From: Methanocella sp. PtaU1.Bin125
GTDB taxonomy: Archaea > Halobacteriota > Methanocellia > Methanocellales > Methanocellaceae
Assembly (NCBI GenBank): GCA_002067315.1
Contig: MVRA01000058.1
Location: 1 to 46,314, forward strand
Direction: 5' to 3'
Length of the DNA stretch: 46,314 nucleotides
This document shows, in pieces, positions 2,259-5,736 of this stretch. Position numbers and translations under genes: made by a program. Numbering within the stretch: the stretch's first letter is position 1; the number at the start of each line of letters is the position of its first letter. A model generated the notes under the pieces. That model was not told the DNA's origin, made no database searches, and worked only from the letters and a program-made list of their open reading frames with translations.

Positions 2259-3533
2259 TTAGAACCCGCAGGCCAGCTCGAGGGGGCACCCGCCGCCGCA
2301 CATGGGGAACTGGATGCACTTGCGGCATTTTTCGCTGGCGTAGTCGTGGTTGCGCAGGCATTTCGCCAGGTCGGTCTCCCAGATCTTTTCGAACGAGTCG
2401 GTCAGCGCGTTGCCGAGGGGCTTGAAGTACGACTGGCAGGGGATCACGTTGCCGTCGGGCTCTATGGCGAGGGTGATGCGGGCGGCGGAGCAGGCTTTCA
2501 CGCCCAGGCCCATCTGCACCGGGTTAAACTTGTGGTACTTGGTAGGCGTGTACCAGATGAACTCCATGCCGAGTTCCTCGGCCTTTTCGATCACCCGGGG
2601 GAGCAGCTCTTTGAGCTCCTCGTAGGTGACGCCTTCCGCTTCGACGCCGCGGCCGGCGCGGATGATCGCGTTCATGCCGAAGCGCCGGATGCCCAGGCCG
2701 TGCAGGAAGGGCACCAGGTCGACCGCCGTGTCTTTGTTGTAGCTCGTGAGGGTGGTGTTCGTGGTCGTGTAGATGTCCTTGACCGTGTTCTTGATGCCGG
2801 CGACGGTCTCGTCGAACGAGTCGGTCCGGCACATGAAGTTGTGTATCTTCGGGTCGGGCGACTCGATCGTGATCTGGGTGTAGTCGAGCCCGGCCTTGTT
2901 CAGCGATGCCACGCGTTCCTTCGTGAGCAGGCGGCCGTTGGTGATCAGGCCGGTGACGATGCCAAGCCGTTCGGCCTCGAGGATCAGCGTCTCCAGGTCG
3001 TCGCGCATGAGCGACTCGCCGCCGGTGAAGACGACGTTGGGCACCTCGAAGTCGCGGACCTTGCGGATGATCTGCATCCACTCTTCCGTCGACAGCTCTT
3101 TAGTCTGGTGCGGGCCGTTGGCGTAGCAGTGGCAGCAGTTGCTGTTGCACCGGTAAGTGAGCGCGAGGTCGACGCGGAGCGGCGCCTTGAGGTTGCGGTG
3201 GTCGGGCGTCTGGACCTTGACATCGAAGGTCGTGAACGGGCAGGTGTTCCCGGCGACCACGCCCCAGATGGCGTTCATCAGGCGGTCGTAGTCTTCCGTC
3301 GCTTTCTTCCGGCCGACCTTGTACTTGGCCATGACGCGGAGCACGACGTTATCCCGGACGCTGCCGACGAGGGGCTTTTTCTGGGTGTAGCCGATGTAGT
3401 GCTTCACGAAGTCCACGCCGATCCTGTCGAGATACAGGACCTGGGACGCGTTCACGACGAGCAGGCCGCTGCCGTCCTTCTCCACCCGCAGGTGGAGCTT
3501 CGAGTTGTTGATCTTCGCTGTCCTCATGTACAT
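2259..3533 (-). CDS. Radical SAM/SPASM protein, putative peptide-modifying enzyme
   Basis: A 424-residue cytoplasmic enzyme. Residues 1-100 look like a small beta/winged-helix domain of the PqqD/RRE type that binds peptide substrates. The radical SAM core starts at C129-x3-C133-x2-C136 (CNSNCCHC), with FTGGESL following as the SAM-binding GGE motif. The C-terminal cysteine set ending CRKCIQFPMCGGGCPLELAC is a SPASM domain holding auxiliary Fe-S clusters. The ATG at 3533 has a GGAGG site upstream and overlaps the stop of the previous gene by 10 nt; a second ATG lies 6 nt later. The gene is last in a three-gene operon, behind a membrane protein ending in a cysteine-rich tail, so modification of that tail is a natural inference. 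Family assignment is firm; the substrate is inferred. Confidence 0.85.
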   Translation of the reverse strand: MYMRTAKINNSKLHLRVEKDGSGLLVVNASQVLYLDRIGVDFVKHYIGYTQKKPLVGSVRDNVVLRVMAKYKVGRKKATEDYDRLMNAIWGVVAGNTCPFTTFDVKVQTPDHRNLKAPLRVDLALTYRCNSNCCHCYANGPHQTKELSTEEWMQIIRKVRDFEVPNVVFTGGESLMRDDLETLILEAERLGIVTGLITNGRLLTKERVASLNKAGLDYTQITIESPDPKIHNFMCRTDSFDETVAGIKNTVKDIYTTTNTTLTSYNKDTAVDLVPFLHGLGIRRFGMNAIIRAGRGVEAEGVTYEELKELLPRVIEKAEELGMEFIWYTPTKYHKFNPVQMGLGVKACSAARITLAIEPDGNVIPCQSYFKPLGNALTDSFEKIWETDLAKCLRNHDYASEKCRKCIQFPMCGGGCPLELACGF

Positions 3534-5197
3534 CCGCCTCCTCCGCCCGCGCAGGCGCAGGCACAGGCACAGGACACGCAGGCACAGGCACAGGACACGC
3601 AGGCGCAGGACGATCCGCCCTGGCCCCCGCCACGCGCCGGGGCGGCCGGCGGCGGGGCGTTGGCCTGGTTCCGGACGCCGAGGAACGACTCCACGCCGCC
3701 AATGATGCCGGCCGACGTGGTCTCGACGGAGTTGCTGATCTTGCTGGCGAAGTTCTCCACGGTCGAGGTGGTCCGGTTGGTGGGCATCGGGGCGGTGCCG
3801 GAGGGCACCTGCGGCGCCGGCTGCCCGGTCGTGGGCGTCTGCGGGGCCTGCTGGTGGGGCAGGCCGAAGTAGTACGGGTACCACCAGTAGTAGGGCGGAA
3901 TCACGACCGTGTTCCATCCCGGCGAACGGAGGGAGTCCTGTGTCTTCGTCGTGAACTGCTCGTCGGCCATGAGCCAGAACATGTCCGTGTCGTACTTCTG
4001 CAGCTTCAGCTCCGGCGTGTCCACGGCCTGGACGTCCTTCCACATCTCGTCGATCTTCTGCCGGTAGAAGGCTTCCGTCTCTTTACGGCTGTAGGGCCGG
4101 GTCTTGTCGACGACGCGCTGGGCGAGGATCTTGAAGCAGTCCAGCAGCCGGTCCTCGCTGAGCTTATCGCCCTTGATGGCGTCGGCGAACCGTGCCTCGT
4201 AGTAGTTCAGGTCTTTCCGCGAGACCAGCTCCAGCCGGAGCGGGTCGGTCGAGAGGAGCTTCGCGTTGCCCTTCTTCAGGAGCCCGAACATGATCATGGT
4301 GAGGACCCGCCGCGGGTCCACCCGCAGCAGCATGGCCGCCTCCACCGGGTCCAGGTTCTGGTTCACGCCCATGCCGCCCATGCTGACCGACGGCGAGGCG
4401 TAAGGGTTGCGGAAGAAGGACGAGATGATGACGAGGGCGATGAAGCCGATGAAGATGAGAGGGAAACAGCACCCGAAAGACCCGCAGATGGAATCTATCA
4501 CGCCCGTGCCGACGGGCCCTACGATGACGCCCCCGTTGTCGCCCTTAGACGTGACCGCGCCCTCGTTCATGTAGCGGTCGGGGAAGCTGACGGCGGTGTC
4601 GAACTGCTGGTTGGGAGCCAGGCTGCTGCCGTTGAAGAAGACCATGGTCCGGTTATACTCCGTGCCGATGCCGGAGTATTCGCGCTGGCCGGTGAACACC
4701 TCGCTGACGTTGATCTCGGCCGGCAGGAGGTACTTGACCATCGTATCGTCGATGGTCATGTCCCACCAGGGCGGGATGAACGAGACGATGACGTAGCCGG
4801 GCCTGTCTGCTATGTAGACCAAGCGAGGCAGTGTCGACTGGATGGACAGGCTGACGGGATCGCCGGGCCGGAGGTTCCACCCCTGCGTCTTGATCTGGCC
4901 GCCGTCGACGTAGAAGCTGTGGCCCGCGCCGGAGCCATCCGTGACGCTGTGGACCTGCATGCTGCTGACGGTGGCCGGTATCCAGACCTCGTCCCAGACG
5001 CCTTTCACGATGGTCGCGCTGACGTTGTAGGTCATGTACACGTTGCCGTCCGCGCCTACGTCCAGGGTGATATGCTGGTAGTCGATCTGCCACCGGTACT
5101 GCTCCTGGGCGGCCGCCGTACCGGATACGGCGATCAGCGCGAGCATGGCAAGTAAAATAACGAACACAGTCTTTTTTGCCATTGGCATTCCTGTCAT
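3524..5197 (-). CDS. DUF2207-like membrane protein with C-terminal Cys-Ala tail
   Basis: 557 residues. Residues 1-30 form a signal peptide, about 31-235 an extracytoplasmic beta-rich domain, and 242-262 a membrane span. The cytoplasmic part contains a winged-helix-like segment ([16 protein letters not shown]) typical of DUF2207 proteins. It ends in a Pro/Gly-rich linker and a 29-residue tail (529-557) with ten cysteines in [10 protein letters not shown] and CACACACA units followed by five glycines and C-T. This topology puts the tail in the cytoplasm, within reach of the radical SAM enzyme encoded immediately downstream. The ATG at 5197 shares ATGA with the stop of the zinc-ribbon gene. Two further in-frame ATGs lie within 15 nt. 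Similar CACACA-GGG tails are known in archaeal DUF2207-like proteins; their function is not known to me. Confidence 0.8.
   Translation of the reverse strand: [557 protein letters not shown]
3557..3598 (-). repeat. 21-bp perfect tandem repeat inside the Cys tail
   Basis: Positions 3557-3577 and 3578-3598 are identical and in frame. Each encodes Val-Ser-Cys-Ala-Cys-Ala-Cys. A third, shorter Cys-Ala stretch lies on each side. Exact identity at the DNA level suggests recent expansion and that tail length can vary. Confidence 0.9.
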
Positions 5198-5736
5198 CCC
5201 TTCTTTTCCTCCGGCTCCTCTGGAGGCCGCATCTTCCGCCACTCGACTGGCGCGCCACAGCTCGGGCACCGGACGGCGTTGATGTCGATGGGCGTGCCGC
5301 AGTACGGGCACTGCATCCGGACATCCTGCGGGAACATGTATGTCTTGACGCCCATGTACTTCGTCGCGTCCAGATTGATGAAGCATACGCCATCACGCGC
5401 GAGGTGGTCCAGGACGCGCTCGGCGTCTTCGTTGCTGAACCCGACCGCGACCATGTCGGTGACGGTCACGATGCCGTTCTTCTTCCGGGATACGGCGACC
5501 ACCTGCCGCTCCATGTTATGATCACGGGCTGCTGCCATCTTCTCCGACTGAATGATCGAGTAGGCCATGTACGCGGCCGCGCCGGACAGGCCGAGGATGG
5601 CCAGCCCCACCAGTATGACAGCGATCGACCAGGACCTGCCGGCGATGAGCGCCATGAGCGCGATAAACCAGAAGGGCAGGCTGATCAGGAACAGCGCGAT
5701 GCTGATCACGATGAGCCACTTGACACGCGAATTCAC
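5194..5736 (-). CDS. Membrane protein with C-terminal zinc ribbon
   Basis: 180 residues from a GTG at 5736. Two membrane spans (about 7-29 and 36-58) are followed by a cytoplasmic helical region (about 85-115, possibly winged-helix) and a zinc ribbon with C143, C146, C157 and C160 (CPYCGTPID...CPSCGAP). The last ten residues are acidic and lysine-rich. I chose GTG 5736 because the longer frame upstream reads into the neighbouring gene with low-complexity sequence, and an A/T-rich box lies at about 5760-5775. It is the first gene of the operon with the DUF2207-like and radical SAM genes, and the stop overlaps the next start as ATGA. I recognise no specific family; a partner or chaperone role for the tail protein is speculation. 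Confidence 0.7.
   Translation of the reverse strand: MNSRVKWLIVISIALFLISLPFWFIALMALIAGRSWSIAVILVGLAILGLSGAAAYMAYSIIQSEKMAAARDHNMERQVVAVSRKKNGIVTVTDMVAVGFSNEDAERVLDHLARDGVCFINLDATKYMGVKTYMFPQDVRMQCPYCGTPIDINAVRCPSCGAPVEWRKMRPPEEPEEKKG

What the first reader, a model, noticed from the sequence alone, without database searches (positions are those of the whole stretch)
2259..5736. Operon pairing a radical SAM/SPASM enzyme with a membrane protein that ends in a Cys-Ala repeat tail
Seen: three overlapping genes: a zinc-ribbon membrane protein, a DUF2207-like protein whose last 29 residues contain ten cysteines in a C-A-C-A pattern, and a radical SAM enzyme with a SPASM domain and an N-terminal PqqD/RRE-like region. 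Known: SPASM radical SAM enzymes with RRE domains modify ribosomal peptides, often at cysteines. Inference: the tail is a fixed, membrane-tethered substrate that becomes thioether-crosslinked or metal-loaded in the cytoplasm, guided perhaps by the zinc-ribbon protein. Cys-Ala tails near such enzymes may have been noted before in archaea, so novelty lies in the three-gene coupling and possible function.
Basis: partly seen in the sequence, partly recalled or inferred. Interest (0 to 1): 0.82.

Follow-up and report, generated by a model that had tools for sequence, protein, structure and literature searches.

The report
Cys-Ala tails paired with radical-SAM enzyme
Several groups of archaea, including relatives of the eukaryote ancestor, carry a membrane protein that ends in an almost pure cysteine-alanine repeat and, in 71 of 72 genomes, also the radical enzyme that probably rewires those cysteines, which points to an undescribed kind of protein modification.

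Summary
On the minus strand, three ATGA-overlapping genes encode a membrane zinc-ribbon protein, a one-TM membrane protein ending [29 protein letters not shown] (10 Cys), and a radical SAM/SPASM enzyme with an N-terminal PqqD/RRE-like domain. The tail is under strong selection: between four genomes of this family 9-15 tail codons differ synonymously and 0-2 non-synonymously.

A survey of three archaeal phyla, including Bathyarchaeota and Asgard archaea, found 72 genomes with a Cys-Ala tail. Of these, 71 encode the enzyme, usually directly downstream, and in six Asgard genomes at an unlinked locus. A sister clade of the enzyme in Asgard archaea pairs with a different tail, (CHSA)n. The switch between tail types needs one change on the enzyme tree. 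This makes the tail the probable substrate.

The nearest solved enzyme, by sequence profile and predicted fold, is the sactipeptide maturase SkfB; SuiB ranks next by fold. Positive-inside charge (27/27) puts the tail in the cytosol.

I infer, but cannot show, Cys-derived thioether cross-links; a metal-binding or redox tail is a rival. No family model and no paper searched names the pair. The closest concept is bacterial TIGR04222 membrane proteins with Cys-rich tails beside MNIO enzymes.

The parts
5194..5736 (-). Membrane protein with N-terminal hydrophobic segments and a C-terminal zinc ribbon (CPYCG...CPSCG), about 180 aa, GTG start at 5736; first gene of the unit
   Evidence: orthologue upstream of the tail gene in G001 (L361:5219-5767); 2-TM zinc-ribbon proteins in the same place in Bathyarchaeota and some Asgard loci
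3524..5197 (-). Membrane protein: signal sequence, extracytoplasmic beta-sandwich (about 30-200 of the 552-aa form starting at 5182), one TM (233-253), cytosolic region, C-terminal Cys-Ala tail
3527..3613 (-). Codons of the Cys-Ala tail [29 protein letters not shown] (10 Cys in 29 residues)
   Evidence: conserved in G001-G003 with synonymous codon changes
2259..3527 (-). Radical SAM/SPASM enzyme, 422 aa: PqqD/RRE-like domain (1-92), radical SAM core (C127, C131, C134), SPASM (C346, C364, C401, C404, C410, C414)

Best explanation
A two-component protein-maturation system, with a frequent third component. The membrane protein is anchored by one TM (three in some Asgard forms) with a beta-sandwich outside and a flexible linker plus Cys-repeat tail in the cytosol. 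The radical SAM/SPASM enzyme, made from the next gene, holds the tail through its RRE-like domain and modifies many of the repeated cysteines in place. The most likely chemistry is intramolecular thioether formation (Cys sulfur to a carbon of an Ala or another neighbouring residue), as in sactipeptide and ranthipeptide maturases, which would turn a floppy thiol-rich tail into a rigid cross-linked one. SHOWN: gene content, conservation, co-occurrence, co-variation of tail type with enzyme clade, RRE/SPASM make-up. INFERRED: that the tail is the substrate (about 0.88), cytosolic location (about 0.85), thioether product (about 0.5). The role of the finished tail and of the zinc-ribbon protein is a guess (metal or redox sensing at the membrane).
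For: Co-occurrence: 27/27 tail genomes in the Bathyarchaeota-containing phylum sample (398 genomes; Fisher p about 7e-39), 38/39 in the Asgard sample (227 genomes; p about 7e-35), 4/4 in this family and 2/2 further Bathyarchaeota have the enzyme (genomes are related, so these p-values are not independent-sample values). In 62 of 72 tail loci the enzyme is the next gene downstream. In G858, G861, G951, G952, G954 and G955 tail and enzyme are unlinked yet both present. Tail type tracks enzyme clade: (CHSA)n tails lie beside the sister enzyme clade, with one change on a 91-row tree. Tail codons: 9-15 synonymous against 0-2 non-synonymous differences. Enzyme: PqqD hits in 22/32 members; best solved relative by profile is SkfB (2.3e-31); top folds are SkfB 6efn (3e-12) and SuiB with peptide (1.4e-11). 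Topology: positive flank on the C-terminal side of the TM in 27/27. An Ala acceptor has precedent: Cys5-Ala12 in ruminococcin C1 (PMC8172795).
Against: No product was observed. The target is the end of a 500-730-residue membrane protein, not a short precursor with a leader, and no protease or exporter gene was recognised next to it (ORFs inspected by eye at a few loci only). Alternating Cys-Ala would force very short or overlapping rings if bridges joined neighbours. Ten enzyme-bearing genomes of the CA clade have no detected tail: G801 and G810 because the tail gene is cut at a contig end; G645, G713, G788, G857, G860, G862, G863 and G864 unexplained. G859 has the tail but no detected enzyme. 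Model confidence is modest (pLDDT 62 for the enzyme, 54 for the tail protein), and the SPASM region of the enzyme model is below 50.
Confidence: 0.6

Rival explanations
1. The enzyme modifies the tail, but not by thioether formation: for example cysteine-to-formylglycine oxidation as in anaerobic sulfatase-maturating enzymes, C-alpha epimerisation, Cys-to-thioaldehyde-type chemistry, or Ala/His modification.
For: The SPASM family and its relatives do several such reactions (established knowledge). The sulfatase-maturating enzyme bound to a Cys peptide (4k39) is among the fold matches and its SPASM region matches by profile. Small residues flank the Cys: -1 is A/S/G in 497 of 539 counted, +1 is A or V in 535 of 542 in CA tails. 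CHSA tails carry His after Cys, so a reaction common to both repeat types must act on the Ala-Cys unit.
Against: The RRE-containing relatives that score best (SkfB, SuiB) make cross-links. Why ten cysteines would all be turned into aldehydes is unclear.
Confidence: 0.25
2. The tail is a metal-binding or redox thiol cluster (metallothionein-like CXC, or Fe-S/Zn) that works unmodified, and the radical SAM enzyme modifies another partner or acts on a substrate delivered by the membrane protein.
For: CXC and C/H repeats are metal ligands; a zinc-ribbon protein sits in the unit; the rSAM-Cys-rich pairing could be indirect. Eight enzyme-bearing genomes have no tail that I could find.
Against: 71/72 co-occurrence and the single matched switch of tail type with enzyme clade are hard to get from an indirect link. 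The RRE-like domain implies a peptide substrate.
Confidence: 0.12
3. Low-complexity, slippage-made C-terminal tail without function, next to an unrelated radical SAM gene.
For: Gly/Ser-rich low-complexity tails occur in bacterial membrane proteins of a similar plan (PMC12452194).
Against: Different codons encode the same residues. The same repeat is kept across three archaeal phyla with the same C-terminal GG(A/G)R-type end. Chance matches to the DNA pattern exist but do not end ORFs of this protein family.
Confidence: 0.01

Closest known systems
SkfB, AlbA and other sactipeptide maturases (radical SAM/SPASM or twitch with RRE)
   Same: RRE-like N-domain plus radical SAM plus C-terminal cluster domain; Cys-rich target encoded next door; SkfB is the best profile and fold match
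   Different: The target here is a repeat tail on a large membrane protein; no leader, protease or exporter recognised; 20% identity in the fold alignment; far below NCBIfam cut-offs (SkfB 85.7 against 300 bits; StsB 84.6 against 625)
TIGR04222 membrane proteins with Cys-rich C-terminal tails next to MNIO (DUF692) enzymes, bacteria (PMC12452194)
   Same: Membrane protein with a large extracytoplasmic domain and a Ser/Gly/Cys C-terminal tail, next to a peptide-modifying metalloenzyme
   Different: The enzyme there is an MNIO, not radical SAM; the tail there is predicted periplasmic, here cytosolic; only 1 of 32 tail proteins here hits TIGR04222, weakly (9e-4)
QhpD with QhpC (thioether cross-linking of a protein subunit by a SPASM enzyme; own knowledge)
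   Same: A SPASM enzyme matures a cellular protein rather than a secreted peptide
   Different: No repeat tail, no membrane anchor; not compared by computation here
ACGX system (TIGR04340 enzyme with an ACGX-repeat peptide; the peptide partner is own knowledge)
   Same: Radical SAM/SPASM enzyme and a repeated Ala-Cys unit in the target
   Different: TIGR04340 scores 61 bits against a cut-off of 400
DUF2207 membrane proteins (PF09972, PF20990)
   Same: Signal, ectodomain, TM, cytosolic part; 3 weak hits among 32 relatives
   Different: The window protein itself is not hit; bacterial DUF2207 proteins are not known to carry this tail (own knowledge)

Membership tests
Radical SAM/SPASM enzymes | CX3CX2C motif for the SAM-binding [4Fe-4S] cluster | tested here: met
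   C127-X3-C131-X2-C134, kept in 31-32 of 32 relatives; Pfam Radical_SAM 32/32
Radical SAM/SPASM enzymes | SPASM motif CX9-15GX4C ... CX2CX5CX3C ... C | tested here: met
   C346-X12-G-X4-C364 ... C401-X2-C404-X5-C410-X3-C414 in at least 31/32; the final Cys in 21/32 by column; Pfam SPASM 32/32
RRE-containing RiPP maturases | PqqD-like RRE domain | tested here: met
   Pfam PqqD in 22/32 members, best 6.7e-7; four strands and three helices in residues 1-92 of the model; the window copy alone is not hit
Sactipeptide/ranthipeptide systems | Short precursor peptide with leader | tested here: not met
   Cys cluster is the last 20-60 residues of a 500-730-aa membrane protein
Sactipeptide/ranthipeptide systems | Equivalog-level match to a known maturase family | tested here: not met
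   No NCBIfam model above its cut-off for the window enzyme; best is 133.9 against 500 bits
Sactipeptide/ranthipeptide systems | Thioether between Cys S and a carbon of another residue | not testable with these tools
   Needs mass spectrometry
ACGX system (TIGR04340) | TIGR04340 score above cut-off | tested here: not met
   61.2 against 400 bits
TIGR04222-MNIO pair | MNIO (DUF692) partner enzyme | tested here: not met
   Partner enzyme is Radical_SAM plus SPASM
TIGR04222-MNIO pair | TIGR04222 domain in the membrane protein | tested here: not met
   Window protein no hit; 1/32 relatives at E 9e-4
DUF2207 | PF09972 / PF20990 match | tested here: inconclusive
   Window no hit; 1/32 and 2/32 relatives at about 1.5e-3

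The most novel reading that the evidence does not exclude
An undescribed archaeal protein-modification system, spread over at least three phyla including Asgard archaea, in which a dedicated radical SAM/SPASM-RRE enzyme converts a cytosolic Cys-Ala (or Cys-His-Ser-Ala) repeat tail of a membrane protein into a poly-cross-linked or poly-modified structure that stays part of the cell: a maintained protein cofactor-like element rather than a secreted natural product.
Probability: 0.55. Interest if true: 0.85.

Novelty: new variant of a known kind. Interest (0 to 1): 0.74.

Why it matters
If the tail is modified, radical SAM/RRE chemistry in archaea serves a resident membrane protein and not only secreted peptides. 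The two repeat types matched to two enzyme clades give a natural experiment on how such enzymes read repeats. The unit is genome-unique, compact (two genes are enough to test) and present in Methanocella-type methanogens, so a mass-spectrometry answer is within reach. It also adds a radical SAM counterpart to the recently described bacterial MNIO/Cys-tail membrane proteins.

Tried and rejected
Slippage or low-complexity artefact: rejected by synonymous codon variation. Tail as a common archaeal feature: rejected; in the own phylum only this family has it, and the other pattern hits are chance as far as fetched. Known NCBIfam maturase family: none above cut-off. Viral or plasmid spread: 80 IMG/VR loci with the DNA pattern gave no convincing tail protein; plasmid relatives of the enzyme are all distant (under 60% identity, the listed ones 23-30%) general SPASM enzymes such as PqqE. 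DUF2207 membership: weak only. Literature: no paper found on DUF2207 with radical SAM, on Cys-Ala tails, or on this pair in archaea; the library holds open-licence papers only. Bacterial genomes could not be surveyed beyond one low-sensitivity scan, so absence from bacteria is not shown.
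Full report
WHAT IS THERE. Three minus-strand genes overlap by ATGA junctions. Gene 1 (5736..5194) encodes a small membrane protein ending in a zinc ribbon (Pfam Zn_Ribbon_1 1.1e-6). Gene 2 (5197..3524) encodes a membrane protein ending [29 protein letters not shown]. Gene 3 (3527..2259) encodes a 422-aa radical SAM/SPASM protein. 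Upstream lie purM-like (6340-7422) and an uncharacterised gene (5771-6316), downstream an IS1182-family transposase (494-1996).

IS THE TAIL REAL. In the three other genomes of the family that are held, an orthologous enzyme (68-74% identity) follows a protein with nearly the same tail. The DNA of the four tails differs at 11-16 of 28 codons per pair, of which 9-15 are synonymous and 0-2 change the residue. The residues are selected, not the DNA repeat.

HOW WIDE. A protein scan of GTDB contigs found the enzyme (43-46% identity in the full-length matches) in Bathyarchaeota, an uncultured archaeon and Heimdallarchaeota, each complete locus next to a Cys-Ala tail protein. I then used the DNA pattern for CACAC (TGYGCNTGYGCNTGYGC) as an unbiased tail probe and the enzyme profile as an independent probe. 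Phylum of the Bathyarchaeota genome, 398 genomes: 27 with a true C-terminal tail, 30 with the enzyme, all 27 tail genomes among them. Asgard phylum, 227 genomes: 39 with a tail, 38 of them with the enzyme. Own phylum: enzyme in 4 of 393 genomes, all in this family; the tail probe in 295 genomes found the same four, and the other 17 hits are not tail proteins as far as their loci were fetched. With two more Bathyarchaeota that is 72 tail genomes, 71 with the enzyme.

HOW THE GENES SIT. In 62 of 72 tail loci the enzyme is the next gene downstream, usually overlapping; in three more it lies upstream within about 5.5 kb. Seven tail loci have no enzyme in the fetched DNA. Six of those seven genomes (G858, G861, G951, G952, G954, G955) encode it elsewhere, so the pair is kept even when unlinked. 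G859 is the only tail genome without it. Ten CA-clade enzyme genomes show no tail. In two of them (G801, G810) the tail protein is present but cut by a contig end. For G645, G713, G788, G857, G860, G862 and G863 no tail protein was found by profile; G864 was not tested that way. The zinc-ribbon gene is directly upstream in most Bathyarchaeota-type loci and in several Asgard groups, including ones where the enzyme is unlinked. It is missing from the sequenced upstream DNA of one large Asgard group.

A SECOND TAIL TYPE. About 28 Asgard genomes carry a sister clade of the enzyme (355-390 bits for the full-length copies) and no CACACA. In 11 of the 13 such loci fetched, and in a related deeper branch (L230), a membrane protein of the same general plan near the enzyme gene ends in Cys-His-Ser-Ala repeats, for example [35 protein letters not shown]. 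G877 has a mixed tail, [31 protein letters not shown]. On a 91-row enzyme tree the two tail types need one change. This co-variation is the best evidence that the enzyme reads the tail. The tree is a 'quick' one with some long branches, but the split in question has full support.

THE ENZYME. All cluster cysteines are kept in at least 31 of 32 relatives: CX3CX2C, then CX12GX4C ... CX2CX5CX3C; the final SPASM Cys in 21 of 32. The odd one out is probably the second, diverged copy in L193. The N-terminal domain hits Pfam PqqD in 22 of 32 members and folds as four strands plus three helices. The best solved relative by profile is SkfB (2.3e-31), then PqqE and SuiB. By fold they are SkfB and SuiB. 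The model is weak in the SPASM part (pLDDT under 50), so the fold comparison rests on the N-domain and barrel.

THE TAIL PROTEIN. Signal sequence; a beta-sandwich resembling domains of ribophorin I and M1 aminopeptidases (low-confidence model, so a lead only); one TM in most (three in some Asgard forms); a cytosolic helical part; a disordered linker; the tail. In 27 of 27 single-TM proteins the C-terminal flank of the TM is the more positive one, which by the positive-inside rule puts the tail in the cytosol, where a radical SAM enzyme could reach it. CA tails have 5-10 Cys in the last 36 residues; the residue before Cys is A, S or G in 497 of 539 and after Cys A or V in 535 of 542. The last residues are mostly GGGR or GGAR in CA tails and SGGFR/SGGYR in CHSA tails.

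MECHANISM. Shown: co-occurrence, co-variation, conservation, enzyme make-up. Inferred: the tail is the substrate (about 0.88). The preferred product is thioether bridges (about 0.5), because the nearest characterised RRE-containing relatives cross-link peptides and because an Ala acceptor has precedent in ruminococcin C1, Cys5-Ala12 (PMC8172795). Other SPASM chemistries remain open. Function of the finished tail: unknown; a metal- or redox-responsive element at the membrane is my guess, nothing more.

KNOWN OR NEW. No NCBIfam model reaches its cut-off for the enzyme or the tail protein. Papers searched do not describe it. A 2025 survey describes bacterial TIGR04222 membrane proteins with Cys-rich C-terminal tails next to MNIO enzymes (PMC12452194), the same idea with another enzyme and the opposite predicted side of the membrane. 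A 2025 study of archaeal RiPPs reports rSAM-modified RiPP clusters in general terms (PMC12144867). I rate this a new variant of a known kind: a peptide-maturase-type enzyme serving a repeat tail on a resident membrane protein. Limits: open-licence library only, no survey of bacteria, genomes related to each other, no experiment.

Noticed in passing
window 494-1996 (-): IS1182-family transposase (NCBIfam 414.7 bits, cut-off 270) directly downstream of the enzyme gene.
   Followed up: no
L193 (G885), 2276-5156: Two tandem copies of the radical SAM gene after one tail gene; one is diverged, and the whole-genome search reads it with an in-frame TAA.
   Followed up: no
L189, L190, L191 (G858, G859, G861): In this Asgard clade the tail gene sits at contig ends in every genome fetched, which suggests that assemblies break near it; tail-negative sister genomes may be false negatives.
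   Followed up: partly
L227 6578-7780, L236 6442-7662: Genes near the CHSA-type enzyme encode what looks like a PLP-dependent D-threonine-aldolase/D-serine-dehydratase-like protein and a 237-243-aa membrane zinc-ribbon protein; roles unknown.
   Followed up: no
L142 (G400): Tail gene present but the enzyme reading frame is broken into several pieces: frameshifts or a decaying copy.
   Followed up: no
window 7435-8553 (-): Secreted YNCE-like beta-propeller protein (Pfam YNCE 2.3e-16) with a C-terminal TM segment.
   Followed up: no
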